NCBI RefSeq assembly: GCF_001547895.1 | Contig: NZ_AP014627.1 | Span: forward strand, 3,723,501 to 3,787,500 | From: Pseudomonas sp. Os17 | GTDB taxonomy: Bacteria; Pseudomonadota; Gammaproteobacteria; Pseudomonadales; Pseudomonadaceae | Length of the DNA stretch: 64,000 nt | Reading direction: 5' to 3' | In this document: in pieces, positions 17,914 through 52,132 of the stretch | Numbering within the stretch: the stretch's first letter is position 1 | Layout: the number at the start of each line of letters is the position of its first letter | Program-made: the position numbers and the translations under genes | Notes under the pieces: generated by a model | What the model was told of the DNA's origin: nothing | The model's database searches: none | What the model saw: the letters and a program-made list of their open reading frames with translations, nothing else

Positions 17914-18772
17914 GGGTACATATCCGTTGCTGCGGGTGCGGCCACTTACGGTTTCGCTCTTACAGCGAGTCACTTTGAAACCCGGAATGCCGGCCAGCCC
18001 AAAGTAACCAAAGGCTCCTGCCCCTCCACTCGGTGCCTCGCATAGCGAGGCATGCCCGAACTCCGGCATTGATCCGTGGGCCGCCGCAATGGGCCATCCA
18101 TGGCCCAGTGCGGCTAACCCGGCGTCCTGCCGGGCTACCCACGGCTCAATGCCTGCGTTCGGCCATCGTGTTTAAGGGGGCAGGAAGATCAAAATCTGAC
18201 GGCGGCCTGCCGGCCTTGTTTCATTTGTCCTTCACAGGGCGATGCTGCTCTTGGGATGGTCGAAGGTCCTGCGGACCTTTACGCAGCTTCGCAGGCTCAG
18301 CAGCGGCTACAGAACGCACGTACTCTGTAGCCGCTGCCGCAGGCTGCGAACGCTCTGGGCGGCACTCCGTCGCAGGAGACGCTAAACCTGCCTCCCCAAT
18401 GTTCCTGAACCACCGCGCCGCCTGGTTTTGCGAGCGCTAGCGCTCGTTCGCAGCCTTCGGCAGCGGCTACAAGGAGCCGGCCTGCGCACCTTGGCTTTTG
18501 ATCTTGATCTTCAGGCCCCTTCCCAGCAGGCCGAGTGCAGGCGTTGCGTAGGGGGCAGCTCGGCAGGGATGCCGAGCTAGCCGCCACCCGGCCATGGATG
18601 GCCGGTTGGCGGCGGGCCCCCGGAGCAATGCCGAAGCGAGGGCACCCCGAGCCCCAGCGAGGGGCCGTATGGAGGGGCAAGCGTTTTTGCTTACTTTTTT
18701 GGCGTTTGAAAAAAGTAAGTCGCCGTAAGGGCGAAACCCTAAGTGGCCGCACCCGCAGCAACGGACATGTAC
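17914..18772. repeat. Giant imperfect palindromic element, copy 1
   Basis: The ends are inverted ~57-bp units: 17914-17970 (GGGTACATATCCGTTGCTGC ... TCTTACAGCGAG) and 18718-18772 (AAGTCGCCGTAAGGGCGAAA ... ACGGACATGTAC). Inside them lie two diverged inverted arms of about 230-280 bases. Landmarks are CTTTGAAACC and TTACTTTTTTGGCG near the ends, CCCCTCCAC against its counterpart GGAGGGGC, and a perfect inverted pair GGCCATCCATGGCC (18092-18105) / GGCCATGGATGGCC (18590-18603). The arms end at AAGATCAAAA near 18186-18195 and TTTTGATCTTGATC near 18495. The centre carries cagcggctac-type palindromes and one inserted AAGGTCCTGCGG repeat. The same structure recurs at 51094-52132. No transposase is encoded; a non-autonomous mobile or RNA-structural element is possible. 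Confidence 0.85.
18262..18310 (+). repeat. AAGGTCCTGCGGACCTTT repeat, copy in palindromic element 1
   Basis: AAGGTCCTGCGGACCTTTAC followed by GCAGCTTCGCAGGCTCAGCAGCGGCTAC-like sequence. It is present in the centre of copy 1 but absent from copy 2 of the large element, so it marks an insertion. Related copies lie at 26759-26810 and, inverted, at 38329-38380. Confidence 0.7.
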
Positions 18773-18896
18773 ACAGCCCACCGCTGTCAGAGCGAACCCC
18801 TGAGCAGCCCTGACCACAGCCACAAATGGGTACCCCGTAGCACAGTGCCCCAGAGGCGCAACCGCCAGCCACCGCAGCCGCCGCCATGCCCCCCAC
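18773..18896. repeat. Two degenerate terminal units beside palindromic copy 1
   Basis: Beyond the right end of copy 1, CGCTGTCAGAGCGAACCCCT followed by CCACAAATGGGTACCCC, then CCAGAGGCGCAACCGCCAGC followed by CCGCCATGCCCC, keep the pattern of the ~57-bp terminal unit in decayed form. Three right-hand units therefore once existed here, as at copy 2. They end about 26 bases from the hxcQ stop. Confidence 0.5.
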
Positions 18897-18922
18897 CCCA
18901 CCATCACCCATCAACGCCCCCT

Positions 18923-21310
18923 TCATTGCACCGGCACCGCCCGAATCGGCGCCCGCGGCGTCTGCGGCACGCCCTGCAACGACACCGGCACCGCCCCGGG
19001 AATCGCCTTGCTCGCCGCCGGCAACTGCGGCGCCTGCATATCCGGCATCGCCCAGCTGCGCTCCGGCTGCAACTCCCCCTGGGCCCGGCGCATGAAGTCA
19101 TAGCGATTGAGGGTGATGCTGCGCCCCGCGCCACTGTCGCGAATGATGTAAGGCCGCAGGAACACCATCAGGTTGGTCTTGGTGATGCTGCGTTTCTCGT
19201 TGCGGAACAAGGCGCCGATCCCCGGGATGCTCGACAGCCACGGCACCGCGTCGTTGCTCTGGCTGTAGCCGTCCTGCAGCAAACCGCCCAGGACCATGAT
19301 CTGCCCGTCATCCAGCAGGATGCTGGTGTCGATCGCCCGTTTGTTGGTCACGGTCCCGGCGTCCACCGAGGCCCGGGGGTCAACGCTGCTGACCTCCTGG
19401 TAGATGTCCAGCTTGACCGTGCCGCCCTCGGAAATCTGCGGCCGCACATTGAGCTTCAACCCCACTTCTTCGCGCTGCACGGTCTGGAACGGGTTGTTGC
19501 TGGTGCCGCCACCGCCGGTGACGTAGCTGCCGGTGACGAAGGGAATGGTCTGGCCGACGAAGATGCTCGCCGCTTCGTTGTCCAGGGTCAAAAGGTTCGG
19601 GGTCGACAGCACGTTGGTCCCGCCCTTGCTCTTCAGGGCCCGGGCCAGGACCTTGAGGTCCAGCACCTTGCCGATCCCGGGGATGTCCACGGTGCCGTTG
19701 ACCACGCCGATGTTCAGGCCCTTGGGCAGTGCGTCGATGCTGGTCTTGCTGGCCGGGGTCCCCACCAGCCCGCTGCCGCCGAGGTTGACTCCGCCAAAGC
19801 CGCCGCGGCCGCCGAGGTTGCCGGCCTGCCACTGCACGCCGAACTCGCTGGCGTCGTCTTCGCCGACTTCGACGATCAGGCTTTCGATCACCACCTGGGC
19901 CCGGCGCTGGTCGAGCTGGTCGATGACTTCCCGCAGGTTGCGGTACAGCGGGTCCGGCGCGGAGATCAGCAAGGTGTTGGTGGTGGCGTCGGCCTGGATG
20001 GTCACGCCGCCGGCGCTGAAGGCGGTGTTCTGGTCGTTCTGCTGGCCGTTGCCACTCAGGCTGCTGGCGCTGGCGCCCTGGCCATAGGCGCCGCTGGTGC
20101 TGGCGCTGCCGTTGAGGTTGCCGCTGGCGGTGGGCGTGCCGCTGCTGTTCTGGGCGCTGCCCTGGGTGCCCTGGGTGCTGGCGCCCATGCCGCTGAGCAT
20201 GGCTCGGGCGCCATCGTTGCCGGTGCTGTCACTCTCGCCGGTGAGCAGGCCGCGCAGGGCCTGGGCCAGCTTGCCGGCCTGGGCATTGCGCAGGTAGACC
20301 ACGTGCAGGTTGCTCGGGTTGCTCTGGGCGTTGTCCAGTTTGTAGACCAGGTTGCGCGCCAGCTCGGTGCGCTCCGGGCTGCCGGCGCGAATGATGATGG
20401 AGTTGGAACGCGGATCGCCGATCACGCTGATCTTCTGGGTCGGGTCGGCGCCCTGGGTTTCCAGCAGTTCGGCCACCATGGTGGCAATGTCCACGGCGAT
20501 GCCGTTGTGCACCGCCACCACATCGGTGTCGATGGCGCTGGGGGTGTCGATGCCGTCGATGATCTGCGCCACCCGCTGCAGGTTCTCGGCGTAGTCGGTG
20601 ACCACGATGCTGTTGTTGCCCGGGTAGGCGTTGATCGGGTTGTTCGGCGAGACGATGGGCCGCAGCACCGGGATCAGGTTCACCGCGTTTTCATACTGCA
20701 GGCGGAAGGTGCGGGTCAGCATGCCGTTGCCCGCCGGTTTGTCGCCGCTGTAGATCGGCCCGCCCAACAGCTTGGCATCGGCCTCGGGCACCACCTGGGC
20801 CACCCCGCCCACGTCCACCACGGCAAAACCCTGCATGCGCAGGGCCGCCAGCAGCATGTCGTAGGCCTGATGGGCCGGCACCTGGCCCTCGCTGACCAGG
20901 GTCAGGTTGCCCTTGACCCGCGGGTCCACCAGGAACTGCTGGCCGGTGGAACGGGCCAGGGCGCGCACCACCGCCTGGATATCGGCCTCGACGAAGTTCA
21001 ATTGCACCGGCTGGTCCCCCAGGGGGTTGCGCGGCACGCTGGTGCTGCGTGGCGTGCCCTGGCCACGGCGGCTGTCGGTCACCGGGTGCAGGACTTTGGG
21101 TCGCGTGGCCTGTTGCGCCTGCACGCGTTCGCGGTCCGCCAGGGCGTCGCCGCTGCGCCGGGTGTCGGCCAGGGGCTGGCCCAGTTCACTGTCCACCAGC
21201 AAGGGCGGCGGCGTGGTGGAGGTGGTGTTGCTGCAAGCCCCCAGCGCCAGCAGCAGAAACGGTGCGACCTTGCGACACTGGCGCACGTAGTTGGAGCCTG
21301 ACCCCTTCAT
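18923..21310 (-). CDS. hxcQ: HxcQ, lipid-modified type II secretin (GspD)
   Basis: 795 aa. The N-terminus has a lipoprotein signal with lipobox LGAC (Cys26) instead of an ordinary Sec leader. This fits HxcQ of P. aeruginosa, a self-piloting lipo-secretin that reaches the outer membrane without a GspS pilotin. N0 domain (about residues 100-170, QLNFVEADIQAVVRALA) and N1-N3 modules follow. A Ser/Gly/Asn/Gln-rich linker lies at roughly 358-430. The secretin core holds VGQTIPFVTGSY and the conserved VGLKLNVRPQISEGGTVKL block. A Pro-rich tail ends the protein. It forms the outer-membrane channel of Hxc. Its ATG overlaps the hxcZ stop (ATGA). Downstream the operon is interrupted by a 1-kb repeat element. 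Confidence 0.96.
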   Translation of the reverse strand: MKGSGSNYVRQCRKVAPFLLLALGACSNTTSTTPPPLLVDSELGQPLADTRRSGDALADRERVQAQQATRPKVLHPVTDSRRGQGTPRSTSVPRNPLGDQPVQLNFVEADIQAVVRALARSTGQQFLVDPRVKGNLTLVSEGQVPAHQAYDMLLAALRMQGFAVVDVGGVAQVVPEADAKLLGGPIYSGDKPAGNGMLTRTFRLQYENAVNLIPVLRPIVSPNNPINAYPGNNSIVVTDYAENLQRVAQIIDGIDTPSAIDTDVVAVHNGIAVDIATMVAELLETQGADPTQKISVIGDPRSNSIIIRAGSPERTELARNLVYKLDNAQSNPSNLHVVYLRNAQAGKLAQALRGLLTGESDSTGNDGARAMLSGMGASTQGTQGSAQNSSGTPTASGNLNGSASTSGAYGQGASASSLSGNGQQNDQNTAFSAGGVTIQADATTNTLLISAPDPLYRNLREVIDQLDQRRAQVVIESLIVEVGEDDASEFGVQWQAGNLGGRGGFGGVNLGGSGLVGTPASKTSIDALPKGLNIGVVNGTVDIPGIGKVLDLKVLARALKSKGGTNVLSTPNLLTLDNEAASIFVGQTIPFVTGSYVTGGGGTSNNPFQTVQREEVGLKLNVRPQISEGGTVKLDIYQEVSSVDPRASVDAGTVTNKRAIDTSILLDDGQIMVLGGLLQDGYSQSNDAVPWLSSIPGIGALFRNEKRSITKTNLMVFLRPYIIRDSGAGRSITLNRYDFMRRAQGELQPERSWAMPDMQAPQLPAASKAIPGAVPVSLQGVPQTPRAPIRAVPVQ

Positions 21311-21867
21311 GAAGCTTCCTTAGCGCCCTGCGCCTGATCCATGCGAACGGTCCCGGACAGTGTGCCTGCCGAGTCTTGGGCGGTGGCCGGGGCGGCGCGT
21401 TGCAGCCGGGCCTCCACCACCTGCAGTGAAAGCTGTCGGGGAGTCCCCAGCAGCCAGCCGACCACGGCATCCGCCGGGGCCTGCTCAAAGGTCAAGCGCC
21501 AGCTCTCGGGGCCGGCTTGATCGGTGCGTTGCAACTGGTAGCGGTCCTTGAGCCCGGCCCGATCCAGGGTCTGGCGCAGGGACTGCTCAAGGTCGGCGCC
21601 CCGGCGATCCGTGCCCGCGGCCTCGTGCAACAGCACTTCCAGGGCCTCGGCCTGGGAGCGCAGCTTCGGCGTCTCGGCTTGCCAGTAGTCGATCTTCTTC
21701 AGCGGCGGCTGAATCAGCAGCCACCACAGCAACAGCCCCAGCACCCCCAGGGCGGTGGCGCTCAGCAGACGTTTCTCCCGGAGCGCCAGAGCCTTCCAAT
21801 GGCCCCGGGCCTGGGTCCGCAGGCGTGACCAGCGCGCCTGATACTGGGCCAGCACGGGCTTATTCAT
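21307..21867 (-). CDS. hxcZ: HxcZ, type II secretion GspM-like protein
   Basis: 186 aa, bitopic inner-membrane protein. A cytoplasmic basic N-terminus is followed by one membrane segment (about residues 38-53, TALGVLGLLLWWLLIQP), a heptad-rich region (AETPKLRSQAEALEVLLHEA) and a small ferredoxin-like C-terminal domain. GspM partners GspL in the assembly platform. It starts 8 bases inside hxcY and ends in an ATGA overlap with hxcQ, so it is translationally coupled on both sides. The family is poorly conserved; position in the cluster carries much of the assignment. Confidence 0.88.
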   Translation of the reverse strand: MNKPVLAQYQARWSRLRTQARGHWKALALREKRLLSATALGVLGLLLWWLLIQPPLKKIDYWQAETPKLRSQAEALEVLLHEAAGTDRRGADLEQSLRQTLDRAGLKDRYQLQRTDQAGPESWRLTFEQAPADAVVGWLLGTPRQLSLQVVEARLQRAAPATAQDSAGTLSGTVRMDQAQGAKEAS

Positions 21868-23047
21868 CTGCGGCTCCCGGGGCGTCGGCGGCGAGGTCAG
21901 CGGGCTCGCCCGCGGCCGGGCTCAGGGTCCAGCCGTTGCCCTCGGCCTGGACGCTGTAGCCGGCCTGGGTCAAGGCGCCCTGCCAGCCGCTGTCGGTGCG
22001 TTTCGGGGTATCGGGCAGCAGTTCCAGCTGCAGGCGCTGGTCGGCAAAACTCAGGCTCTGCACGCTGCCCACCATGAACGGCATGGCGCTGCCGGCCTGC
22101 AGCAGCAGGTTGACGAATCCCTGGCTCGGGTCCGCCGCCCCGCTCTGCTGCGCCGCCAGTTGCTGGCGGGCCTGTTGTAGGGGATTGAGCACCACCGGCA
22201 ACTGCGGAAACACCTGCCGGACCCGCTGGCTCATCTGGTTCTTGAGGCGCAGGCCCTGCTCGGCCTCACGGGCGGCATACAGGTTCAGGCCCACGACCCA
22301 CACGGCCACGGCCAGTGCGCAGCAACCCAGGGCCCGGCCCCAGCCCTGGACCGCGCCGCGGGTCGCCATCGCCCCCGCCTGCAGGCCCCAGGCCGGCGCC
22401 GCGCCGCTCCAGCGCTGTTCGACCGGCAGGCGCTGCAGCGCGCCCTCCGGCGCGTCGTCACCAATCCAGCCCAGCCCGGCGCCGGAGGCGCGCAACTGTT
22501 CCAGGGTTTCCTCGACCAGAGGCTCCACGCTGGCCTGGGCGGCGCTGTGGCGCAGCAGCAACTGACCGTCCAGCAGGCACAGGTTGTGCTGCCCCGGCGC
22601 CGGCACCGCCAAGGCGTATGGCGCCGGGTACAGGCCCGAAAGCTTCAGCCCGGCCTGTTGCAGCAGCTCGCCCAGGGCTTGCAGGCGGCTGATGGGCAGC
22701 CAGCTCAAGGTCACCTGGCCCTGGGCATCCCGCGGGCCGTGGGCGACATGCATCTGCTCGCCGCAACCGAGGATCAGCGCCTGGGCCGCGCAGTCCACCG
22801 CGGCCTTGGTCCGAGCCGCCGGCAACGGCGGCAGCTCGATGCAGGCCAGCAGGCTGTCCTGCGGGTGCAGAAAGCACTCCAGGGCCAGCCCTCGGGCGTC
22901 CTGGGCCAGTGCCTCAAGCGCCCTGCGGCCGAGCGCGGTCACCCGCCCGGCGCGGTCCAGCCGGGCGCATTCCACGGGCACGGCCAGGGGCCGGGGCGCG
23001 TGCAACAGCTCGGCCAGGGGCGGCAAGGCCAGGCGCAAGCGGCTCAT
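21860..23047 (-). CDS. hxcY: HxcY, type II secretion GspL-like protein
   Basis: 395 aa from the ATG at 23047, chosen because it forms an ATGA overlap with the hxcX stop; a longer frame exists but would run deep into hxcX. The cytoplasmic actin-like GspL domain (about residues 1-240) is followed by a membrane segment near residues 250-270 (GRALGCCALAVAVWVVGLNLYA, split here only by description), and a periplasmic GspL C-terminal ferredoxin-like domain. GspL links the GspE ATPase to the inner-membrane platform. Confidence 0.9.
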   Translation of the reverse strand: MSRLRLALPPLAELLHAPRPLAVPVECARLDRAGRVTALGRRALEALAQDARGLALECFLHPQDSLLACIELPPLPAARTKAAVDCAAQALILGCGEQMHVAHGPRDAQGQVTLSWLPISRLQALGELLQQAGLKLSGLYPAPYALAVPAPGQHNLCLLDGQLLLRHSAAQASVEPLVEETLEQLRASGAGLGWIGDDAPEGALQRLPVEQRWSGAAPAWGLQAGAMATRGAVQGWGRALGCCALAVAVWVVGLNLYAAREAEQGLRLKNQMSQRVRQVFPQLPVVLNPLQQARQQLAAQQSGAADPSQGFVNLLLQAGSAMPFMVGSVQSLSFADQRLQLELLPDTPKRTDSGWQGALTQAGYSVQAEGNGWTLSPAAGEPADLAADAPGAADE

Positions 23048-24027
23048 GCTCCCACCCGCGACCAGATCACCTGGGGCATGCGGTCTTCGGGGCGGTGCAG
23101 CAAGGCATGCAGGGTGATCCGCCGCTGGTCGCGACGGACCTGCCCCTGGAGCAGGAACCACTCGCTGGTGATGCCGACCTTGATCCGCTCCTGCGCGGCA
23201 AAGGGCATGCGCAGGCGATTGACGAAGTCGCCCCGGTTGATGAACCAGTGCCCGGCGTCGCGCTCTGCCACCAGGGCCCGGGCCCGGGACAACGACAGCC
23301 CCGGCACCGCCACCGCCAGTACTTCGGCGCTGGCGGTGTTGCCATTGATCCAGGTGTTGCCCGGCAGGACGCTGACGTAGGGCTCAAGGCGCGCCAGCAG
23401 CGCCTCGTCGACGCCCTGAACGCCCAGCAGGTCGTCCAGGCTGCGCAGCATTGGCTGGCGCGGCGGCAAGGTCTGCACCGCCGCCCCCGGCGAGGTCAGG
23501 CGACCGCTGTTGAATGCACCCGGGGTGCCTGCGGTGGCGGCCGGACTGGACAGGCGCTGGGGATACGAGGCGATCACCCGCTGGCTGATTCGCCGGCTCA
23601 GGGCGGCGTCGACGCCGAGCAGCTGGCACAGCTGTTGGAAACTCTGCACCTGCTCCGGGTCCACCTGCTGGTTGAACACCAGGTTGCGCAGGTTGAACTT
23701 GCCCTGCAGGTCTTGCAGGCGGCCCTGGAAACCGCCGCCGGATGCGCCGAGGGCCGGATCGCCGATGGGCCGCGCCCAGGGCTGGTCGAGCCGGGTCAGC
23801 ACCTCGCGCTGGCGGGCTTCCCAGAGCAGTTGCCGGCTGAATTCCAGGCCGCCCCGCAACGCCCCGCCGCCGACGATCCGCGCCTGCTCGGCTTCCACCG
23901 CGCGGGTCAGGACGGTCTGCCGCGAGAGCATGCCGGCGGCGAGCACCGCCACCACCGCGGCAATCAGCAAGGCGCTGATGATGGCCATGCCGCGCTGCTT
24001 CGCCGCACAGGGCGAATGACTGTTCAT
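23044..24027 (-). CDS. hxcX: HxcX, minor pseudopilin GspK
   Basis: 327 aa, typical for GspK, the largest pseudopilin. The start MNSHSP at 24027 follows hxcT by eight bases. The prepilin peptidase site is KQRG/MAIISALLIAAVVAVLAAG; the usual Glu at mature position 5 is replaced, which is normal for GspK. The large alpha-domain contains helix-hairpin-helix-like repeats (SLDDLLGVQGVDEALLARL and VPGLSLSRARALVAER). GspK caps the pseudopilus tip with GspI and GspJ. The longer 494-codon frame upstream is only open reading through the alternate frame of hxcT. Confidence 0.93.
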   Translation of the reverse strand: MNSHSPCAAKQRGMAIISALLIAAVVAVLAAGMLSRQTVLTRAVEAEQARIVGGGALRGGLEFSRQLLWEARQREVLTRLDQPWARPIGDPALGASGGGFQGRLQDLQGKFNLRNLVFNQQVDPEQVQSFQQLCQLLGVDAALSRRISQRVIASYPQRLSSPAATAGTPGAFNSGRLTSPGAAVQTLPPRQPMLRSLDDLLGVQGVDEALLARLEPYVSVLPGNTWINGNTASAEVLAVAVPGLSLSRARALVAERDAGHWFINRGDFVNRLRMPFAAQERIKVGITSEWFLLQGQVRRDQRRITLHALLHRPEDRMPQVIWSRVGA

Positions 24028-24035
24028 GGGCGGCC

Positions 24036-24482
24036 CTAGAGCTGCCAGGAGCCGATATCGGCATTCACGCCTTCGCCGTCGGGCTGACCGTCGGCGCCCA
24101 GGGAGAACACGTCCACTTCGCCGCTGGCCCCCGGGTTGAGGTAGTGATAGGGGCGTCCCCAGGGATCGTTGGGCAGGCGTTCCAGGTAGGAGCGCCAGTT
24201 GCTGTCCTTGGCGTTGGCCGGACGCTCCACCAGCACCTTGAGGCCCTGGTTCATGCTCGGGTAGCTGCCGTGGTCGAGGCGATACAGCTTCAGGGCCTGC
24301 ATCAGTCCGGCGATGTCCTGCTTGGCCGCGGTGGCCCGCGCCTGGTCGGGACGGTCGAGCACCTTGGGCACCACCATGACCGCGAGGATCCCGAGGATGA
24401 CCACCACCACCATGATCTCGATCAGGGTGAAGCCATGCTGGCCTCGGGGTGCGGCGGTTGACGTTACAGGCGCGATATCCAT
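24036..24482 (-). CDS. hxcT: HxcT, major pseudopilin GspG
   Basis: 148 aa from the ATG at 24482, which has AAGGA eight bases upstream; the frame extends further upstream without support. The type IV prepilin site is RGQHG/FTLIEIMVVVVILGILA with the conserved Glu5. The C-terminal domain has the GspG signature NDPWGRPYHYLNPG and the calcium-site region DVFSLGADGQPDGEG. It polymerises into the pseudopilus piston. It heads the hxcT-X-Y-Z-Q run and is divergent from hxcV, with a candidate control motif 53-81 bases upstream of its start. Confidence 0.96.
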   Translation of the reverse strand: MDIAPVTSTAAPRGQHGFTLIEIMVVVVILGILAVMVVPKVLDRPDQARATAAKQDIAGLMQALKLYRLDHGSYPSMNQGLKVLVERPANAKDSNWRSYLERLPNDPWGRPYHYLNPGASGEVDVFSLGADGQPDGEGVNADIGSWQL

Positions 24483-24534
24483 CTCGACATTCCTTGGCTT
24501 GAGTTCGATTCGTCGCGCAGTGTTGCAAGAAGAT

Positions 24535-24563
24535 ATGTCAGTGGTATTGAAAAACCTCGGGAG
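24535..24563 (-). promoter_or_regulatory. Candidate VreI/PhoB control motif upstream of hxcT
   Basis: On the minus strand: CTCCCGAGGTTTTT, eight bases, CTGACAT, 53 bases before the hxcT ATG. The 14-mer and its spacing to CTGWCAY are the same as upstream of the DING gene (14831-14859). CTGACAT differs at one base from the Pho-box half CTGTCAT. Function is inferred. Confidence 0.45.
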
Positions 24564-24630
24564 TTTCGGTCGCCATTCGGTCAAGCCTGCAGGCTAGGCT
24601 GCGAGGCTGTTTCCCGGTGTCGAGCGGCCC

Positions 24631-25017: not shown

Positions 25018-25020
25018 GCG

Positions 25021-25461: not shown

Positions 25462-25579
25462 TGGCGGGACCTCCTGTTTGTCCGTTCCCGCAGCCTACAG
25501 GGCAATTCTCACGGTTTTATTTCACCCCGCGATCATCGGCCCCAGGCCGGCTGATCCTATCGCCAAGGAGTGCAATCCG

Positions 25580-43849: not shown

Positions 43850-45483
43850 CCCGCTGCACCGCCGCCCTTCTGCTAGCCCTCGCGTTCTGGACTGCCCCGT
43901 CCCAGGCTGCCGGGCTGTCCGCCAGCCTGGACCGCAGCCAGGTGAACGCCGGGGAAACCGTCGAGCTGACCCTGGAGTCCACCGACGTCACCCAGTTCGG
44001 CAAGCCCGATCTCACGCCTCTGGACAGTCAGTTCGAAGTGCGCGGCACACGCCAGGTCAACCAGCTCAACAGCCTGGGCGACAACCACGCCAGCACCCGC
44101 TGGATCATCACCCTGCTGCCGCGCCAGCTCGGCACCCTGGAGATCGCCCCGCTGCAACTGGGCAATCTGCACAGCCAGGCCCTGAGCCTGCAAGTCAACG
44201 CCGGGGCGGCCCAGGACCAGGACGCCCGGCTGGAGCCGGTGTTCATCAAGGCCGAACTCGACCGCCCCAAGGTCTACGTCCAGGCCCAGGCCCTGCTGAC
44301 CCTGCACATCTACCATTCGGTGCCACTGTTCGACGACAGCAACCTCAGCCCCCTGCAACTCGACGATGCCCGGGTCGAGCAACTGGGCGAGCCACGCACC
44401 TACGAAAAACTCATCAATGGCGTGCGTCACGGGGTGATCGAGATGCGCTACGCCCTGTACCCCCAGCGCAGCGGCCAGTTGCAGATCCCGGCGCTGACCT
44501 TCAGCGCCACCCTGGCCAACCCGGGCAACGACCAGGAACCCGCGCCCCAGGCTCCCAAGCCCGGCAAGCTGATCCATGTGAGCTCCGAGCCCATGAGCCT
44601 GGACGTGCTGGGCAAGCCCGCCGGCTATCCCGCCGACGTCCCCTGGCTGCCGGCGCGCCGCCTGGAGTTGACTGAAAGCTGGAACCCGGAGCCCGATCAC
44701 CCGCAGGTCGGTGACTCCCTGACCCGCACCCTGACCCTGCGCGCCGAAGGCCTGTCCAGCACCCAACTGCCGCCCCTGCCCCAGCCCGAGGTCAACGGCC
44801 TGCGCAGCTACCCCGACCAGCCGCAACTGAGCAACCAGCACGTCGAGCAGGGCCTGCTGGGCATTCGCGAAGAGCGCCAGGCGCTGGTGCCGACCCGCAC
44901 CGGCGAAGTGAATTTGCCGGGCCTGGAAGTGACCTGGTGGAACACCCAGGAAGAGCGCCTGGAACTCACCCGCCTGCCGGCCCGCAGCCTGCAAGTGGCG
45001 AACAACCCGAGCCTGGTGGTGGATACCCCGGCCGGCACGCCCCCGGCCGGCAGCAACGATGGTCCGCTCTGGCCCTGGCAACTGAGCACCCTGCTGCTGG
45101 CCTGCACCACCCTCCTGGGCTTCGGCCTGTGGTGGCGGGCACGCTCGCAACCGGCGGTGCTGCGCGCCACCCAGACCGGCCCGAGCCCACGCTCGCTGCT
45201 GGACGACCTCAAGCGCGCCTGTCAGGCCAACGACCCGCAGACCACCCGCCAGGCCCTGGACGCCTGGGCGCGCCAGCAACCGGAAACCCTGGCCGACATG
45301 GCGGCGCGATTCATCCCGCTGTCCGATGCCCTGGACGGCCTCAACGGCGCCCTCTACAGCGAAACCGGCCAGTATTGGCAAGGTGAGGAGCTGTGGCGGG
45401 CAATCCGCGCCATTCCCATCAACGAGCGGGTCCAGGACCCGTTGACGGACACCACCAGCCTGCCACCGCTCTACCCCAAATAA
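43846..45483 (+). CDS. BatD-like protein (oxygen tolerance family)
   Basis: 545 aa. A signal peptide (MTRCTAALLLALAFWTAPSQAA) precedes several beta-sandwich domains typical of BatD (SASLDRSQVNAGETVELTLE; VYVQAQALLTLHIYHSVPLF). A late membrane segment lies near 395-425 (WPWQLSTLLLACTTLLGFGL) followed by a short cytoplasmic helical tail. Last gene of the MoxR-Bat operon, coupled by ATGA. It is probably a periplasmic scaffold for the VWA proteins. Confidence 0.92.
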   Translation: MTRCTAALLLALAFWTAPSQAAGLSASLDRSQVNAGETVELTLESTDVTQFGKPDLTPLDSQFEVRGTRQVNQLNSLGDNHASTRWIITLLPRQLGTLEIAPLQLGNLHSQALSLQVNAGAAQDQDARLEPVFIKAELDRPKVYVQAQALLTLHIYHSVPLFDDSNLSPLQLDDARVEQLGEPRTYEKLINGVRHGVIEMRYALYPQRSGQLQIPALTFSATLANPGNDQEPAPQAPKPGKLIHVSSEPMSLDVLGKPAGYPADVPWLPARRLELTESWNPEPDHPQVGDSLTRTLTLRAEGLSSTQLPPLPQPEVNGLRSYPDQPQLSNQHVEQGLLGIREERQALVPTRTGEVNLPGLEVTWWNTQEERLELTRLPARSLQVANNPSLVVDTPAGTPPAGSNDGPLWPWQLSTLLLACTTLLGFGLWWRARSQPAVLRATQTGPSPRSLLDDLKRACQANDPQTTRQALDAWARQQPETLADMAARFIPLSDALDGLNGALYSETGQYWQGEELWRAIRAIPINERVQDPLTDTTSLPPLYPK

Positions 45484-45487
45484 CGGC

Positions 45488-45548
45488 AGCCGCAAGCGGC
45501 GAGCTGCAAGCCTCAAGCAGCTCGTAGCTTGCCGCTTGCCACTTGCCG
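45488..45548. repeat. Degenerate palindromic repeat / hairpin after batD
   Basis: GCAAGCGGCGAGCTGCAAGC followed by ctcaagcagctcgtagcttgccgcttgccacttgccgc: nested inverted GCAAGCGGC / GCCGCTTGC and GAGCTGC / GCAGCTC. Likely ends the bat operon message; no T-run. Confidence 0.55.
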
Positions 45549-45569
45549 CTGCTTTACCTGGAGTTTGCC

Positions 45570-46814
45570 TTGCGTCTGTTTCACACCTCCGACTGGCACC
45601 TGGGCCAGAACCTCCACGGCCAGGAACGCGACTTCGAACACGCCTGCTTCCTTGAGTGGCTGCTGCGTCAGCTCAAGCATGAGCAGCCGGATGTGCTGCT
45701 GATCGCCGGCGACATCTTCGACACCGTCAACCCGCCGGTCAAAGCCCAGGAGCGGCTCTACGACTTCATCGTCAGCGCCCACGAACAACAGCCGGCCCTG
45801 ACCGTGGTGATGATCGCCGGCAACCACGACTCCGGCTCGCGCATCGAACTGCCGGCGCCCCTGATGCGGCGCCTGCGCACCCACGCCCTGGGCCGGGTGC
45901 TGTGGCTGGATGACGGCCAGCTGGATGTCGAACGCCTGCTGCTGCCGCTGCCCGACGCCAGTGGCGCGGTCCGCGCCTGGTGCCTGGCGCTGCCGTTCCT
46001 GCGGCCAGCGGAAGTCACCGGCCCGCAACGGGGCGACGACTACCTCAAGGGCATCGCCCAGGTCCATGAATGGCTGATCGCCGCGGCCAACGCCAAGCGC
46101 CAGCCGGGCCAGGCCCTGGTGGCGGTGAGCCACGCCCACATGGCCGGCGGCTCAATCTCGGAAGATTCCGAGCGCAGCCTGATCATCGGCAACGCCGAGG
46201 CCCTGCCCGCCAGCCTGTTCGGCGCGGACATCAGCTACGTGGCCCTGGGGCACCTGCACCAGCCGCAGAAGGTCAATGGCGAGGAGCGCATCCGCTACAG
46301 CGGCTCGCCGATCCCGCTGTCGTTTTCCGAGATCGGCTATCAGCACCAGATCCTCGATGTGCGCCTGGACGGCGAGACCCTGGTCAGCGTCGAACCGCGG
46401 CTGATTCCCCGGGCGGTGAACCTGCAACGCCTGGGCCCGGCGCCCCTCGGAGAAATCCTCGACCAGCTCGGCGAGCTGCCGGACATCGACCTTCTGGCCG
46501 AAGAACAGCGCCAGCCCTGGCTGGAAGTGCGGGTACGTCTGGACGAACCGCAGCCGGACCTGCGCCAGCAAGTGGAAAGCGCCCTGCAAGGCAAGGCCGT
46601 GCGCCTGGTACGGATTGCCGCCGAATACGCCGGCAAGGGCGGACGCGACGCGCAAGACAGCGGCGCCGAGCTGATCGAACTGGATCAACTGAGCCCCGAA
46701 GAACTGTTCCGCCGGGCCTGGCGCGACGCCTACGGCAACGAGGTGGACGACACCACCCTCAAGGATTTCGCCCTGCTGTTGCAGGACGTGCAGCAAGAAG
46801 GGGAACAGCCATGA
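45570..46814 (+). CDS. sbcD: SbcD, nuclease subunit of SbcCD
   Basis: 414 aa. The TTG at 45570 is taken as start because it puts LRLFHTSDWHLGQ at the N-terminus as in SbcD and has GGAG six bases upstream; an ATG at 45543 would add nine atypical residues. Metallophosphoesterase motifs are in order: SDWHLG, GDIFD, AGNHDSGS, SHAHMAGG, LGHLHQPQ. It provides the Mn-dependent nuclease that trims hairpins and protein-blocked ends. Its stop overlaps the sbcC start (ATGA). Confidence 0.95.
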   Translation: MRLFHTSDWHLGQNLHGQERDFEHACFLEWLLRQLKHEQPDVLLIAGDIFDTVNPPVKAQERLYDFIVSAHEQQPALTVVMIAGNHDSGSRIELPAPLMRRLRTHALGRVLWLDDGQLDVERLLLPLPDASGAVRAWCLALPFLRPAEVTGPQRGDDYLKGIAQVHEWLIAAANAKRQPGQALVAVSHAHMAGGSISEDSERSLIIGNAEALPASLFGADISYVALGHLHQPQKVNGEERIRYSGSPIPLSFSEIGYQHQILDVRLDGETLVSVEPRLIPRAVNLQRLGPAPLGEILDQLGELPDIDLLAEEQRQPWLEVRVRLDEPQPDLRQQVESALQGKAVRLVRIAAEYAGKGGRDAQDSGAELIELDQLSPEELFRRAWRDAYGNEVDDTTLKDFALLLQDVQQEGEQP

Positions 46815-49800
46815 AGATCCTGGCCATCCGCCTGAAGAACCTGGCCTCCCTGGCCGGGCCGTTCGAGATCGACTTCACCGCCGAGCCCCTGGCCAGCGCC
46901 GGGCTGTTTGCCATTACCGGGCCGACCGGCGCCGGCAAGAGCACCCTGCTCGACGCCCTGTGCCTGGCGCTGTTCGGCGCGGTGCCGCGGCTGAACAACA
47001 TCGGCCGCGAGACCAAGGTCCCCGAGGTCGACAGCGAGATCCTCACCAGCGACCCGCGCACCCTGCTGCGCCGGGGCAGCGGCAGCGGCTATGCCGAGGT
47101 GGACTTTGTCGGCATTGACGGGCGCCGCTACCGCGCCCGCTGGGAGGCCAACCGCGCCCGCGACAAGGCCAACGGCAAGCTGCAGGCCAGCCGGCAGAAC
47201 CTCACCGACCTGGACAGCGAACAACTGCTGAGCAACCAGAGCAAGAGCGAATACAAGCAGTTGATCGAGGCCCGCCTGGGGCTCAACTTCGAGCAATTCA
47301 CCCGCGCGGTGATGCTGGCCCAGAGCGAGTTCAGCGCCTTCCTCAAGGCCGATGACAAGGAACGCAGCGAGCTGCTGGAAAAGCTCACCAACACCTCGAT
47401 CTACAGCCAGTTGGGGCGGCGCGCCTACAGCAAGAGCAAGGAGGCCGAAGAGGTCCACAAGGAACTCAAGGCCCAGGCCAGCGGCATCACCCCGCTGGAC
47501 CCCGAAGCCCGGGCCGAGCTGGATCAACAGTTCGACGCCGCCCGGCAGCAGCTCAAGGAGCAGCAGGCCCGGCTCAAGCAACTGGAGGCCCAGCACAGCT
47601 GGCTCAAGGAGCTGGGACAGTGGCAGCAGGCCCGACAGGACGCCGCCGAGCAGTTGCAACAGGCCGAGCAGCAGGCCCTGGCTCTGGCCCCAGAGCGCCT
47701 GCGCCTGCAGCGTCTGGAACAACTGGCGCCGCAGCGCCACCAGTTCCTGCGCCAGATCGAGCTGCACCAAGCACTGGAGCCCCTGGGCCAACAGATCGAG
47801 CAGCAGGCCGCGCAACAGGTTGAGCTGCAACAACGTCACCAACAGCTGCAACAGCACGTGCTCGACGCCGACAGCGCCCTGACCCAGGCCCAGAGCCAGC
47901 ACAGCGACAGCGCGCCGCTGCTGCGCGAAGCCTTTGCCGAACAGGCCAATCTGAGCCGTCTTGGCCAGAGCCTGAGCGAGGCCGGCGAAACCCGTGACCG
48001 CGCGCAAAGCGTCAGTGCCCAAGGCCAGCAAAGCATTGCCCAACTGCTGGAGAAGCAGCGTCTGGTGGGTGAGCGCCTGGAGCGGATTGCCGGGCAGTTG
48101 GCGCACAGCGCCGCCCTCGCCCCCTTGAGCGAAGCCTGGACGCTCTACCGCGAACGCCTGCAGCAACTGATGCTGATCGGCAACCGCCTGAATCAGGGCC
48201 AGGCCGAATTGCCAGCCCTGGAACAGCGGGCCGGCACCGCGGCTCAGCAACTGGCCGAACAACGTTCCCACCTTGAATTGCTCTACAGCGAAGCCGGTGC
48301 CGAACCCCAGGCCGTGGCCGAGCAGATCCAATTGCTGGACGGCCTGCTCAAGGACAACCGCAAGCAACAACGGGCCACGGAAGAGCTGGCACGGCTCTGG
48401 GCCCAGCAACAGGAACTGGACCAGCGCGGCCGGGCCCTGCAAGACAAGCAGCAAGCCGTGGCCGCCCAGCGCGAGGCGCTGAACCAGGCCGGCCTGCAAG
48501 CCAAGGCCGAACTGAGCGTCGCCGAGCAGACCCTGAGCGTCACCCAGGCCTTGCTGGAGCGCCAGCGCCTGGCCCGCAGTGCCAGTGTCGAGGAGCTACG
48601 CGGGCAGTTGCAGGACGACCAGCCCTGCCCGGTGTGCGGCAGCGTCGAGCACCCCTATCACCAGCCCGAAGCCCTGCTGCAAAGCCTGGGGCGCCATGAC
48701 GAAAGCGAAGAAGCCAACGCCCGCCAGGCGGTGGACAGGCTCAAGGAACAGCTCAACGAATTGCGGGCCCAGGTCCAGGGCCTGATCGCCCAGCAGAAGG
48801 AATTCCTCCAGCAACAGGAACAACTGGCCAGCCAGCAACAGGCGCTGGCCCCCAGCCTGCAAGCCCACCCGCAGAGTGCCAGCCTGCTGGACCAGGACCC
48901 GGCGCGACGCGATGCCTGGCTACGCCAGCAACTGGAACAGTTGCAACAGAGCATCACCCAGGATGAAAGCCGCCTGGATGCCTTGCTGACCCTGCAAAAG
49001 GACGCCACGCGGCTCCAGCAGCAGTTGCAGCAAGCACAAGACGCCAGCCAGCAGGCGGCCCAGCATCTGCACAAGCAGCAGGAGCAATTGGCCGCCGACC
49101 AACAGCGTCTCGAAGAAGAACTGGGCAGCTTCAACAACCTGCTGCCGGCCGAGGTGCTCGAAGGCCTGCGCCGTGATCCGGCCAGCACCTTCATGCAACT
49201 GGACCAGCAGGTGCTGCAACGCATCGAACAACTGCGCGAGCGCCAGGATGAAGCCGAAGAACAGCAGCAGCGCCAACTGCTGCTGGACAAGGAACAGGAC
49301 CGCCAACTGACCCGCCAGCAGCAACTGAGCGACGCTCAGCAGCAGCTCGACGCCCTGAGCCAACAGCACCAGGCCTGCCAGGACCGGCTGGCCGCCCTGC
49401 TGGGGTCGCACCCTAGCGCCGAGCTCTGGCAGCAACAGCTCGATCAAGCCGTGGAACAGGCCCGCAGCGCCCAGGCCAAGGCCCAGCACGAGCAGCAGGA
49501 GCTGCAGCAGCAACTGATCCAACTGAGCGCCGAGCTCAAGGCCCGGCAAGAGCGTCTGCAAGCCCTGGACAGCGAACGACAGCAACTGGCCGGCAGCATC
49601 GAACAATGGCGTGCCCAGCATCCGGAGCTGGACGACAGCGGCCTGCAACAGCTGCTGGAACTGGACGAGGAACAGGTCCAGCAACTGCGCCAGCACCTGC
49701 AGGCCAACGACAAGGCCATCGAACAAGCCAAGGTCCTGCTCCAGGAGCGTCAGCAACGCCTGCAACAGCACCAGGCCCAGCACAACGGCAACCTGGAGGC

Positions 49801-50455
49801 CGGGCAACTGGCCCAGGCCCTTGAAGGGCTGCAGCAACAAGCCCTCGCCAGCGAACAGCAGGTGGCGGAACTGCGCGCCCGGCAAAGCGAGGACCAGCGC
49901 CGCCAGGAGGCCAATCAGGCCCTGGGCCAGCAGATCCACGACGCCTACCAGCAATGGCAGCGCTGGGCCCGCCTGAATGCCCTGATCGGCTCGGCCACCG
50001 GCGACACCTTCCGCAAGATCGCCCAGGCCTACAACCTCGACCTGCTGGTGCACCACGCCAACGCCCAACTGCGCCAGCTGGTGCGGCGCTACCGCCTCAA
50101 GCGCGGCGGCAGCATGCTCGGCCTGCTGGTGCTGGACACCGAAATGGGCGATGAACTGCGCTCGGTGCACTCGCTGTCCGGCGGCGAAACCTTCCTGGTG
50201 TCCCTGGCCCTGGCCCTGGGGCTGGCGTCCATGGCCTCCAGCACCCTGAAGATCGAATCGCTGTTCATCGACGAAGGTTTCGGCAGCCTCGACCCCGAGT
50301 CCCTGCAACTGGCCATGGACGCCCTCGACGGCCTGCAGGCCCAGGGGCGCAAGGTCGCGGTGATTTCCCACGTGCAGGAAATGCACGAACGGATCCCGGT
50401 GCAGATCCAGGTCAGCCGCCAGGGCAACGGCCTGAGCACCCTGGAGGTGAAATGA
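46811..50455 (+). CDS. sbcC: SbcC, SMC-like ATPase subunit of SbcCD
   Basis: 1214 aa. Walker A GPTGAGKST (37-45) heads an ABC half-domain. Two very long Gln/Leu-rich coiled coils flank the zinc hook CPVC (606-609). The ABC signature SLSGGETFLVSLALALGL and Walker B LFIDEGFGSLD are at the C-terminus. It forms the ATP-driven clamp for SbcD in DNA end and palindrome processing. The coiled coil is unusually rich in Gln-Gln and Gln-Leu pairs. Overlaps both neighbours by ATGA. Confidence 0.97.
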   Translation: MKILAIRLKNLASLAGPFEIDFTAEPLASAGLFAITGPTGAGKSTLLDALCLALFGAVPRLNNIGRETKVPEVDSEILTSDPRTLLRRGSGSGYAEVDFVGIDGRRYRARWEANRARDKANGKLQASRQNLTDLDSEQLLSNQSKSEYKQLIEARLGLNFEQFTRAVMLAQSEFSAFLKADDKERSELLEKLTNTSIYSQLGRRAYSKSKEAEEVHKELKAQASGITPLDPEARAELDQQFDAARQQLKEQQARLKQLEAQHSWLKELGQWQQARQDAAEQLQQAEQQALALAPERLRLQRLEQLAPQRHQFLRQIELHQALEPLGQQIEQQAAQQVELQQRHQQLQQHVLDADSALTQAQSQHSDSAPLLREAFAEQANLSRLGQSLSEAGETRDRAQSVSAQGQQSIAQLLEKQRLVGERLERIAGQLAHSAALAPLSEAWTLYRERLQQLMLIGNRLNQGQAELPALEQRAGTAAQQLAEQRSHLELLYSEAGAEPQAVAEQIQLLDGLLKDNRKQQRATEELARLWAQQQELDQRGRALQDKQQAVAAQREALNQAGLQAKAELSVAEQTLSVTQALLERQRLARSASVEELRGQLQDDQPCPVCGSVEHPYHQPEALLQSLGRHDESEEANARQAVDRLKEQLNELRAQVQGLIAQQKEFLQQQEQLASQQQALAPSLQAHPQSASLLDQDPARRDAWLRQQLEQLQQSITQDESRLDALLTLQKDATRLQQQLQQAQDASQQAAQHLHKQQEQLAADQQRLEEELGSFNNLLPAEVLEGLRRDPASTFMQLDQQVLQRIEQLRERQDEAEEQQQRQLLLDKEQDRQLTRQQQLSDAQQQLDALSQQHQACQDRLAALLGSHPSAELWQQQLDQAVEQARSAQAKAQHEQQELQQQLIQLSAELKARQERLQALDSERQQLAGSIEQWRAQHPELDDSGLQQLLELDEEQVQQLRQHLQANDKAIEQAKVLLQERQQRLQQHQAQHNGNLEAGQLAQALEGLQQQALASEQQVAELRARQSEDQRRQEANQALGQQIHDAYQQWQRWARLNALIGSATGDTFRKIAQAYNLDLLVHHANAQLRQLVRRYRLKRGGSMLGLLVLDTEMGDELRSVHSLSGGETFLVSLALALGLASMASSTLKIESLFIDEGFGSLDPESLQLAMDALDGLQAQGRKVAVISHVQEMHERIPVQIQVSRQGNGLSTLEVK

Positions 50456-51078
50456 GCACGCGGCCGATGCCCGAGGCGACCCTCTACTCGTTCCGCCGCT
50501 GCCCTTACGCCATGCGCGCGCGACTGGCGCTGCGCTATGCCCAGGTGCCCGTGCAGATCGTCGAGGTCAGCCTCAAGGCCAAGCCGGCCGAGATGCTGGC
50601 TCTGTCGCCCAAGGGCACGGTGCCGGTGCTGGCGGTGGATGGGCGGGTGATCGATGAGAGCATGGAGATCATGCACTGGGCGCTGGAGCAGCATGATCCG
50701 GACAACTGGCGGCTCATCGGCGCCCCCGAGGCCCAGACACAGATGGCGGCCTTGATTGCCGAGAATGATCAGGTGTTCAAGGTGCACCTCAATCGCTACA
50801 AGTACGCCGAGCGTTATCCCGAAGCGCCCATGGAGCATTACCGGGCCCAGGGCGAGGTGTTTCTGGCGCAGTTGGAGCGCCTGCTGCAGGAGCGACGCTA
50901 TCTGCTGGCGGCGCATCCGAGCTTGGCGGACATGGCCCTGCTGCCGTTTGTTCGCCAGTTTGCTCATGTGGACCGGGAGTGGTTTGCGCAGACGCCTTAT
51001 CCTGCGTTGCAGGAGTGGTTGCAGGTGTTTCTTGAATCGAAGTTGTTTGTGGGGGTCATGGCCAAGACTTTGGCGTGA
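50452..51078 (+). CDS. Glutathione S-transferase family protein
   Basis: 208 aa. The N-terminal thioredoxin fold begins TLYSFRRCPYAMRARLALRY, with a glutaredoxin-like CPYA at the catalytic site, then the cis-proline region GTVPVLAV and DESMEIMHWA that binds glutathione. An all-helical C-domain follows (SLADMALLPFVRQFAHVD). The cysteine active site suggests thiol transfer or deglutathionylation rather than classical conjugation. Coupled to sbcC by ATGA. The substrate cannot be predicted. Confidence 0.9.
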   Translation: MSTRPMPEATLYSFRRCPYAMRARLALRYAQVPVQIVEVSLKAKPAEMLALSPKGTVPVLAVDGRVIDESMEIMHWALEQHDPDNWRLIGAPEAQTQMAALIAENDQVFKVHLNRYKYAERYPEAPMEHYRAQGEVFLAQLERLLQERRYLLAAHPSLADMALLPFVRQFAHVDREWFAQTPYPALQEWLQVFLESKLFVGVMAKTLA

Positions 51079-51093
51079 GTTTTTGTTGTGGGG

Positions 51094-51275
51094 TTGGGTA
51101 CATATCCGGGGCTGCGGGTGTAGCGGCTTATGGTTCCGCTTTTACAGCGGGGTTGGGTACATATCCGTTTCTGCGGGTGCGGCCGCTGGCGGTTCCGCTC
51201 TTACAGCGAGTGGGAGGGGGTACATATCCATTCCTGCGGTCACGGCCACTGGCGGTTTCGCTCTTACAGCGAGTC
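51094..51275. repeat. Left array of three ~57-60 bp terminal units, palindromic copy 2
   Basis: Three head-to-tail units at about 51094-51150, 51151-51211 and 51217-51275. Each begins GGGTACATATCC, passes CTGCGGGTG-type sequence and ends CTTACAGCG or TTTACAGCG. They differ from one another at many sites, so this is not a recent duplication. Inverted relatives form the right array at 51951-52132. Confidence 0.85.
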
Positions 51276-51950
51276 ACTTTGAAACCCGGAATGCCGGCCA
51301 GCCCAAAGTAACCAAAGGCTCCTGCCCCTCCACTCGGTGCCTCGCATAGCGAGGCATGCCCTCACTCCGGCATTGATCCGTGGGCCGCCGCAATGGGCCA
51401 TCCATGGCCCAGTGCGGCTAACCCAGCGTCCTGCCGGGTTACCCACGGCTCAATGCCTGCGTTCGGCCATCGTGTTTAAGGGGGCAGGAAGATCAAAAAC
51501 CAGATCAAGATCAACATCTGACGGCGGCCTACCGGCCGACCTGTTTCATTGCCGTTCGCGTTACATGTAGCCGCTGCCGAAGGCTGCGACCGGCTCCGCA
51601 GGAGACGCTAAACCTGCCTCCCCGATATTCCTGACCTATCGCGCCGCCTGGTTTTGCGAGCGCGAGCGCTCGTTCGCAGCCTTCGGCAGCGGCTACAAGG
51701 AGCCAGCCTGCGCAACTTGGCTTTGGCTTTTGATCTTGATCTTCAGGCCCCTTCCCAGCAGGCCGAGCGCAGGCGTTGCGTAGGGGGCAGCTCGGCAGGG
51801 ATGCCGAGCTAGCCGCCACCCGGCCATGGATGGCCGGTTGGCGGCGGGCCCCCGGAGCAATGCCGGAGAGAGGGAACCCCGAGCCCCAGCGAGGGGCCGT
51901 ATGGAGGGGCAAGCGTTTTTGCTTACTTTTTTGGCGTTTGAAAAAAGTAA
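51276..51950. repeat. Core of giant imperfect palindromic element, copy 2
   Basis: Nearly identical to copy 1 over the outer arms: CTTTGAAACCCGGAATGCCG at the left and TTGCTTACTTTTTTGGCG with GTTTGAAAAAAGTAAG at the right. The inverted landmark pair GGCCATCCATGGCC (51396-51409) / GGCCATGGATGGCC (51822-51835) is present. The centre is shorter than in copy 1 because the AAGGTCCTGCGG insertion is missing. It lies between the GST gene and the DUF1345 gene. Confidence 0.87.
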
Positions 51951-52132
51951 GTCGCCGTAAGGGCGAAACCCTAAGTGGCCGCACCCGCAGCAACGGATAT
52001 GCACACCGTCCCACTCGCCGTAAGGGCGAAACCGTAAGTGGCCACACCCACAGCAACGGGTATGTACCCCCTCAAACTCGCCGTAAAGGCGAAACCACCA
52101 GCCGCCACACCCGCAGCAACGGATATGCCCCC
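51951..52132. repeat. Right array of three terminal units, palindromic copy 2
   Basis: Units at about 51951-52010, 52013-52070 and 52076-52132, each of the form CGCCGTAAGGGCGAAACC ... CCCGCAGCAACGGATATG. They are inverted relative to the left array, giving a 3+core+3 symmetric arrangement. Confidence 0.85.

What the first reader, a model, noticed from the sequence alone, without database searches (positions are those of the whole stretch)
17914..52132. A ~0.9-kb non-coding element, present twice, is a giant diverged palindrome
Copies at 17914-18772 and 51094-52132 share outer arms almost base for base. Within each copy the left arm and the reverse complement of the right arm follow the same order of landmarks: CCCCTCCA, CGGCATTG-TCCG, GGCCATCCATGGCC, CGGC-TCCTGCCG, CGCCTGC-TCGGCC, AAGATCAAAA. 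The arms are related but diverged, so this is an old inverted duplication that has been kept as a unit. A transcript could fold into a hairpin of roughly 250 paired bases per arm. No protein is encoded. It may be a non-autonomous mobile element or an RNA-structure element distinct from the known short REP/REPIN families.
Basis: seen in the sequence. Interest (0 to 1): 0.75.

Follow-up and report, generated by a model that had tools for sequence, protein, structure and literature searches.

The report
Head-to-head twin Rsm-binding RNA repeat
The palindrome is a dispersed DNA repeat in which two copies of a known but unexplained RNA (TwoAYGGAY) sit head to head; each RNA carries hairpins shaped like landing sites for the global regulator RsmA/CsrA, so scattered repeats may be soaking up that regulator.

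Summary
In detail: both copies are diverged inverted repeats with no evident protein. Each arm scores as a known RNA family, TwoAYGGAY (Rfam RF01731), RNA strand outward, in the same Rfam clan as this genome's RsmX and RsmY. The genome has nine two-arm copies, one with a shortened arm, plus single arms. The family occurs in 32 of 59 genomes of the genus and, multi-copy, in six other families of the class. Adjacent units are outward pairs in 36 of 41 cases (five genomes of the genus) and 25 of 27 (eight distant genomes). In five genomes 53 of 55 pairs join two arm subtypes, so the pair looks like the unit that spreads. Fifty arms show strong, strand-specific RNA covariation with A-N-GGA loops, N free. 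In distant genomes the first loop keeps this rule in 57 of 57, the second in 42. Best reading: a dispersed element that, when transcribed, makes Rsm/CsrA-binding RNA. Transcription, binding and the way it moves were not shown. The family and a proposed CsrA role were in print; my searches found no paper linking it to paired repeats. New variant of a known kind.

The parts
17914..18772 (.). Copy 1, whole element: left arm, REP-type centre, right arm; lies between gspE and gspD
   Evidence: (eight other two-arm copies in the genome, one with a shortened arm), (flanking T2SSE and Secretin)
17916..18196 (-). Copy 1 left arm; RNA strand is minus, pointing outward
   Evidence: arm profile hit
18058..18160 (-). 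TwoAYGGAY RNA (RF01731) core of left arm, 49.5 bits (gathering 43)
18115..18137 (-). Rsm/CsrA-type hairpin, loop CAGGACG (A-GGA, N missing)
18090..18107 (-). Rsm/CsrA-type hairpin, loop CAUGGAUG
18263..18392 (.). Centre: repeat sequence (read as REP-type) also found at many other places of the genome
   Evidence: many dispersed matches to query bases 350-479
18499..18772 (+). Copy 1 right arm; RNA strand is plus, pointing outward
   Evidence: arm profile hit
18553..18619 (+). TwoAYGGAY RNA (RF01731) core of right arm, 57.5 bits
18557..18578 (+). Rsm/CsrA-type hairpin, loop CAGGGAUG
18588..18605 (+). Rsm/CsrA-type hairpin, loop CAUGGAUG
51098..51211 (-). Two tandem ~55-bp sub-repeats of the outer end, left flank of copy 2
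51220..51500 (-). Copy 2 left arm
51362..51464 (-). TwoAYGGAY RNA core, 46.8 bits
51419..51441 (-). Rsm/CsrA-type hairpin, loop CAGGACG
51394..51411 (-). Rsm/CsrA-type hairpin, loop CAUGGAUG
51731..52004 (+). Copy 2 right arm
51785..51851 (+). TwoAYGGAY RNA core, 57.5 bits
51789..51810 (+). Rsm/CsrA-type hairpin, loop CAGGGAUG
51820..51837 (+). Rsm/CsrA-type hairpin, loop CAUGGAUG
52013..52127 (+). Two tandem ~55-bp sub-repeats of the outer end, right flank of copy 2

Best explanation
Each copy is a dispersed intergenic repeat made of two TwoAYGGAY RNA units placed head to head, RNA strands facing outward, here around a REP-type centre. The pair is the usual unit of spread; single arms are a minority in the four genomes profiled. 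Selection acts on each arm as RNA on the outward strand: a closed stem holding two A-N-GGA hairpins about 28 nt apart, plus three further hairpins. The most likely action is that, when a copy is transcribed (by read-through from a neighbouring gene, or from a start in the centre that I could not find), the arm binds RsmA/RsmE/CsrA through its loops, acting as a small decoy or as a local regulatory site. With arms head to head, read-through from either side yields one sense arm. Shown here: identity, pairing, dispersal, RNA-level selection, loop rule. Inferred: transcription, protein binding, effect on Rsm level.
For: RF01731 hits on all four window arms; 21 of 22 own-genome hits are over the family cut-off. 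Same Rfam clan (CL00106) as this genome's RsmY and rsmX. 50 arms: 97.3% of cells paired against 79.8% shuffled, 39 of 50 pairs compensated, covariation 0.471 against 0.143 (0 of 500 shuffles reach it) and 0.03-0.09 when slid. 88 G-U against 8 A-C cells over 49 of the 50 pairs, marking the outward strand. Loops: A 50 of 50, each base of GGA at least 49 of 50, N variable (T24 G10 A7 absent 9; T38 G9 A2 absent 1), spacing 28 nt in 42 of 50. In 60 matches of eight distant genomes a loop-blind script found both hairpins in 57; the first loop obeys A-(N)-GGA in 57 of 57, both loops in 42. Outward pairs 36 of 41 and 25 of 27; two-subtype pairs 53 of 55. A CsrA role was proposed for the family in PMC4333381 (passage read).
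Against: No transcript or binding data were available. In 15 of 57 distant arms (five genera) the second loop reads mostly ACGA, so one site is lost; in 9 of 50 arms of the main set the first loop lacks N. The matches were found with a family model that itself contains the loops. No sigma-70-type promoter was found in copy 1 (0, expected 0.2). The whole copy folds in silico as one arm-to-arm hairpin that would bury the sites. Outer ends often face a gene tail (65 of 95), so read-through first makes the antisense of the near arm. CsrA presence does not discriminate: 20 of 20 genomes with the family and 17 of 19 without it encode CsrA. The fold program allows G-U but not A-C, so the A-C count is biased down.
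Confidence: 0.62

Rival explanations
1. A non-autonomous transposon (MITE or foldback type): the arms are long terminal inverted repeats read as DNA by a transposase acting in trans, and the RNA-like features are a by-product of single-strand hairpins.
For: Multi-copy and dispersed; one site, the gspD-gspE spacer, seen with and without arms in relatives; the outer ~55 bp are nearly identical between the arms of copy 1; pairs of two subtypes recur as units; REP-like sequence in the centre, and REPs are thought to be moved by a single-strand transposase (recalled).
Against: No target duplication recognised and no autonomous copy seen (no systematic search). Ends are not constant: most G020 arms printed end in another hairpin and the printed G383 copies have two kinds of end. 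G-U cells far exceed A-C cells, which DNA hairpins do not predict. A free N inside otherwise invariant loops fits CsrA better than a fixed DNA site.
Confidence: 0.22
2. A gene-end element: the copies serve as two-way transcription terminators or mRNA 3'-end protectors and survive because they sit safely behind stop codons.
For: 65 of 95 outer ends face a gene tail, 27 of them within 60 nt; a terminator-like hairpin with T run on the read-through strand of the right arm at 18734-18720.
Against: The same bias is expected of any insertion that must avoid promoters. In the own genome only 11 of 18 ends face tails. Terminator-like sites in copy 1 are 3 against 1.0 (sd 1.1) expected. Covariation marks the opposite, outward strand and reaches into the outer hairpin (a U-G pair in 33 of 50 at columns 265/306). 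It does not explain the A-N-GGA loops.
Confidence: 0.13
3. Cis-regulatory RNA: arms act mainly on the gene they precede, most genome-wide copies being relics.
For: Rfam types the family as cis-regulatory; a single arm in sense orientation lies 70-85 nt upstream of a mutS open frame in nine virus-database contigs, its core nearly invariant by eye.
Against: Outer ends face gene tails more often than starts (65 against 30). Whether arms without a gene downstream in sense keep the structure as well was not tested separately.
Confidence: 0.15

Closest known systems
TwoAYGGAY RNA (Rfam RF01731)
   Same: Each window arm reaches the family's curated score with the two-hairpin core in order.
   Different: In the passages I read it is a probable RNA of human gut, gammaproteobacteria and Clostridiales (PMC2864571) with two CsrA-type motifs (PMC4333381); genomic repeats or pairs are not mentioned there. 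Here the conserved arm is about 270 nt, longer than the matched core, multi-copy and usually paired head to head.
RsmX/RsmY and other CsrA/Rsm decoy RNAs (clan CL00106)
   Same: Same Rfam clan; loops obey A-N-GGA.
   Different: Those are single- or few-copy genes with their own promoters and more GGA sites (recalled); here at most two sites per arm, many dispersed copies, no promoter found in copy 1.
REP/REPIN and the R-family repeats of P. fluorescens (PMC2718517, passages with Table 3 read)
   Same: Intergenic, dispersed, hairpin-forming; a REP-type sequence fills the centre of copy 1.
   Different: Arms are about 270 nt and carry an RNA fold.
MITE / foldback elements
   Same: Small, non-coding, inverted arms, multi-copy.
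   Different: No target duplication recognised, ends vary between genomes, RNA-level selection.

Membership tests
TwoAYGGAY RNA (RF01731) | Covariance-model score at or above the curated cut-off | tested here: met
   46.8-57.5 bits against 43 for the four window arms
TwoAYGGAY RNA (RF01731) | Two hairpins with AYGGAY-type loops | tested here: met
   Loops A-N-GGA-Y in 50 arms; the second base is often G or A and is absent in 9 of 50 first hairpins
CsrA/Rsm-binding RNA | A-N-GGA in hairpin loops, at least two sites | tested here: met
   Window arms and 50-arm set; only 42 of 60 matches in distant genomes have both sites by a loop-blind script
CsrA/Rsm-binding RNA | Binds RsmA/RsmE/CsrA and lowers its free level | not testable with these tools
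   needs gel shift, CLIP or reporter work
CsrA/Rsm-binding RNA | Transcribed | not testable with these tools
   no RNA data; promoter scan of copy 1 found none
REP/REPIN | Short palindromic core making up the arms | tested here: not met
   Arms are ~270-nt RNA units; REP-type sequence lies in the centre or on the inner side
MITE | Terminal inverted repeats | tested here: met
MITE | Target-site duplication | tested here: inconclusive
   flanks of nine own copies and one site in relatives read by eye; none recognised, decayed outer sub-repeats blur the edges
MITE | Shared ends with an autonomous transposon | tested here: inconclusive
   only an IS110-type transposase inserted into one centre was seen; no systematic search
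R87/R178/R200 repeats of P. fluorescens | Sequence identity to the published families | not tested

The most novel reading that the evidence does not exclude
An ancient gammaproteobacterial repeat that spreads as a head-to-head pair of CsrA/Rsm-binding RNAs and works as a distributed decoy: each inserted pair gives one sense decoy whichever neighbour is transcribed, so copy number tunes the host's Rsm set point, and the repeat gains by weakening or riding on a global regulator.
Probability: 0.25. Interest if true: 0.85.

Novelty: new variant of a known kind. Interest (0 to 1): 0.6.

Why it matters
TwoAYGGAY was listed without a function in 2010 (PMC2864571) and still called of unknown function in 2014 (PMC4333381; passages read). 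Seeing it as a paired, dispersed genomic repeat gives that family a genome-scale context. It also suggests that a repeat can carry binding sites for a global post-transcriptional regulator: Rfam counts 22 arms, so up to 44 GGA hairpins, in this genome. It makes two questions testable together: what intergenic repeats of Pseudomonas do, and whether the Gac/Rsm balance is set only by the known Rsm RNAs.

Tried and rejected
Replication polarity. In the own genome all nine two-arm copies and the six single arms scored by Rfam point from dif to the origin. In a five-genome test, arms counted as single pointed against the fork in 4 of 4, 6 of 7 and 6 of 7 (G000, G010, G017) but 1 of 6 and 7 of 21 (G015, G020). 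Some of those 'single' arms have a partner below the Rfam threshold. Not universal; left as a lead.

Autonomous version between widely spaced arms. One G010 pair holds an IS110-type transposase in the centre, read as an insertion. Two G000 arms at 2.326 and 2.328 Mb are in tandem, not inverted, with a HicB-like frame between.

Carriage by phages and plasmids. One phage record and one plasmid record match. Twenty virus-database stretches match; about ten share one site by DNA similarity, and nine show mutS, so these are chromosomal edges and not evidence of phage carriage.

Ancient split of arm types. A tree groups both types by genome in G015, G017 and G020; in the own genome the two types fall apart, one grouping with G015 at support 0.17.

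CsrA co-occurrence: uninformative.

Loop rule in distant genomes. A first strict search included the loops in its pattern and found double hairpins in 33 of 60 loci. A first recount undercounted, because it let the first and last loop bases pair. The loop-blind recount is and showed the loss of the second site in 15 arms; confidence was lowered a little for that.

Literature. Searches listed no paper tying TwoAYGGAY to genomic repeats. I read passages of five papers (PMC2718517, PMC2864571, PMC4333381, PMC11701678, PMC7657543) and saw the rest as listings only. Only open-licence PubMed Central text is held.

Rows dropped. The covariation set is 50 of 51 non-redundant arms of at least 240 nt, chosen from 88 unique arms of at least 200 nt. 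The strand count uses 49 of 50 pairs. The two-subtype test left out one of nine own copies, one of twelve G383 pairs, and pairs with an arm of 200 nt or less. The gene-context test used 61 arm clusters from 60 fetched regions of four genomes, with my own codon-usage gene caller, arms over 90 bits, and neighbours within 1 kb.

Full report
What was checked. The window lies in a complete genome (G000, 6,885,464 bases, window at 3,723,501-3,787,500). Both copies are real diverged inverted repeats: aligning the left half to the reverse complement of the right half gives scores of 180 and 264 against shuffle maxima of 37 and 28. A search of the genome with copy 1 finds nine two-arm copies (one, at 2.797 Mb, lacks about 90 bases of its left arm), single arms, and many dispersed matches to the centre, which I read as REP-type.

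What each arm is. Rfam places TwoAYGGAY RNA (RF01731) on all four arms of the window: on the minus strand in left arms and the plus strand in right arms, so the RNAs face outward. Of 14 further own-genome loci scanned, 11 carry the family, six of them as outward pairs. RsmY and rsmX of this genome belong to the same Rfam clan, CL00106. PMC4333381 (passage read) had proposed CsrA binding for TwoAYGGAY on motif grounds; PMC2864571 (passages read) lists the family without a function.

RNA-level selection. From 88 unique arms of at least 200 nt I kept 51 non-redundant ones and aligned 50. The consensus fold has 50 pairs, 39 with changes on both sides; 97.3% of cells pair, against 79.8% in shuffles and 33-47% when slid by 1-3 columns. 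Over 49 of the pairs there are 88 G-U cells but only 8 A-C cells (55 against 8 without the one pair that is mostly U-G), which marks the outward strand as the working one; the fold program permits G-U and not A-C, so part of this is bias. In both loops A and GGA are invariant or nearly so, while the base between them is free. Mean entropy is 0.035 for A and GGA, 1.15 for N, 0.71 for stems and 0.70 for other unpaired positions. The GGA motifs are 28 nt apart in 42 of 50. That is what CsrA-type proteins read (recalled; motif match in PMC4333381) and is hard to explain by a DNA site. In the whole 64-kb window the only such hairpins lying 20-60 nt apart are those of the four arms.

Spread. RF01731 matches 32 of 59 genomes of the genus (30 over the cut-off) and 24 of 369 genomes of the class, own genome included (16 over the cut-off, which scored few candidates per genome, so these are lower bounds). 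Eight genomes of six other families have 6 to 30 matches each. In 60 of those matches that lay in fetched stretches, a script blind to the loop letters found two hairpins 20-36 nt apart in 57. The first loop is A-(N)-GGA in 57 of 57 and both loops are in 42. In the other 15 (G322, G443, G455, G566, G660, G383) the second loop is mostly ACGA, so one site is lost. Stems there are unrelated in sequence to the Pseudomonas ones. Outer hairpins of the form GGTNACTTTT...AAAAGTNACTCGC recur by eye in several distant arms, not in all (L369 and L253 lack them).

Pairing. Among adjacent matches starting within 2.5 kb, 36 of 41 are outward in five genomes of the genus and 25 of 27 in eight distant ones, 12 of 12 in G383. 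With a more sensitive profile, 36 of 61 arm clusters in four genomes are outward pairs, 3 are triples and 22 single. In five genomes 53 of 55 pairs join one arm of each of two types. Arms of one type from different pairs (mean 87-97% identical by genome) are closer than the two arms of a pair (77-86%), though in G020 the gap is small (89 against 86%). So the pair spreads as a unit and the arms are not being made identical. A tree nevertheless groups arms mainly by genome, which suggests species-specific amplification or exchange rather than one ancient duplication.

Sites. In the gspD-gspE spacer that holds copy 1, no arm matched in 26 of 29 relatives fetched (in one, L130, the contig ends short of gspE). 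L117 and L137 hold a single arm, L132 a fragment at its contig end, and G017 a full pair. REP-like inverted repeats are seen by eye in L116, L118, L121, L122 and L138. The closest relative (L113) keeps what look like remnants of the outer ends, so its site may be a deletion rather than never filled. I recognised no target duplication. Outer ends face gene tails in 65 of 95 cases, median 77 nt, against 30 heads, median 184 nt; pairs with heads on both sides are 2 of 35. For the own nine copies it is 11 of 18. In G020 a REP-like 12-base word lies on the inner side of 28 of 32 arms, and its 10-base core on the inner side of 26 and the outer side of none. In G015 no such word stood out and the centres are short, so a REP centre is not universal. 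Ends are modular: by eye 15 of 17 G020 arms printed end in a different hairpin followed by GATCTT-like repeats, and the six G383 copies printed have two kinds of end.

How it may work. An arm RNA alone folds into the conserved structure (z -5.2 to -6.9 for four arms) and would offer two sites to an Rsm dimer. Because arms face outward, transcription through the element from either side gives one sense arm. The same transcript would also carry the antisense of the other arm, and in silico the whole copy prefers an arm-to-arm hairpin; the sustained difference between arm types may weaken that, which is inference. No promoter was found in copy 1, so read-through is the likelier source. CsrA is encoded in 20 of 20 genomes checked that have the family and 17 of 19 that lack it, which is consistent but uninformative.

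Verdict. Its arms are a known RNA family with a proposed regulator. What I did not find in print is the head-to-head pairing, the dispersal as a unit, the strand-specific covariation over the whole ~270-nt arm, and the free-N loop rule across genera. Function as an Rsm/CsrA decoy or local regulatory site is the best reading and is not demonstrated.

Noticed in passing
IMG/VR stretches L378, L382, L384, L385, L386, L387, L389, L390, L395: A single TwoAYGGAY arm in sense orientation lies 70-85 nt upstream of the start of a mutS open frame in nine contigs, with a core nearly invariant by eye and a variable outer part; possibly a domesticated copy.
   Followed up: partly
G000 arms at 2.298-4.708 Mb, dif at 3,414,818: All nine two-arm copies and the six single arms scored by Rfam in the own genome point from dif toward the origin; other genomes do not show this consistently.
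   Followed up: partly
L017, L020, L021 (G000 3.674, 2.346, 4.635 Mb): Three single arms lie within about 0.45 kb of a C4 antisense RNA match (69-79 bits, gathering 45). Neighbouring proteins with a Pfam match were a transposase domain, a ShlB-type protein, an MFS transporter and an acetyltransferase, no clear phage gene.
   Followed up: partly
window 16463-21310: Copy 1 lies between gspE and gspD of a type II secretion cluster, both on the minus strand, 21 nt from the start of gspE; the two genes are close together in several relatives.
   Followed up: partly
L098 1280-2308: An IS110-type transposase gene sits in the centre of one G010 pair, between the arms.
   Followed up: no
L338, L340, L341 (G383): GGCATGAAT-like units (in tandem in L338) with a CAGATTTTGC hairpin occur next to or inside the outer hairpin of some G383 arms.
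   Followed up: no
MT121968.1 5285-5481 and NZ_CP015601.1 58034-58194: The only records that matched copy 1 in the phage and plasmid collections; two places in each record.
   Followed up: no
G322, G443, G455, G660 arms: In these genomes the second hairpin loop often reads ACGA in place of A-GGA, with a nearly constant GCGACACGACGTCGC hairpin; whether another protein reads it is open.
   Followed up: no
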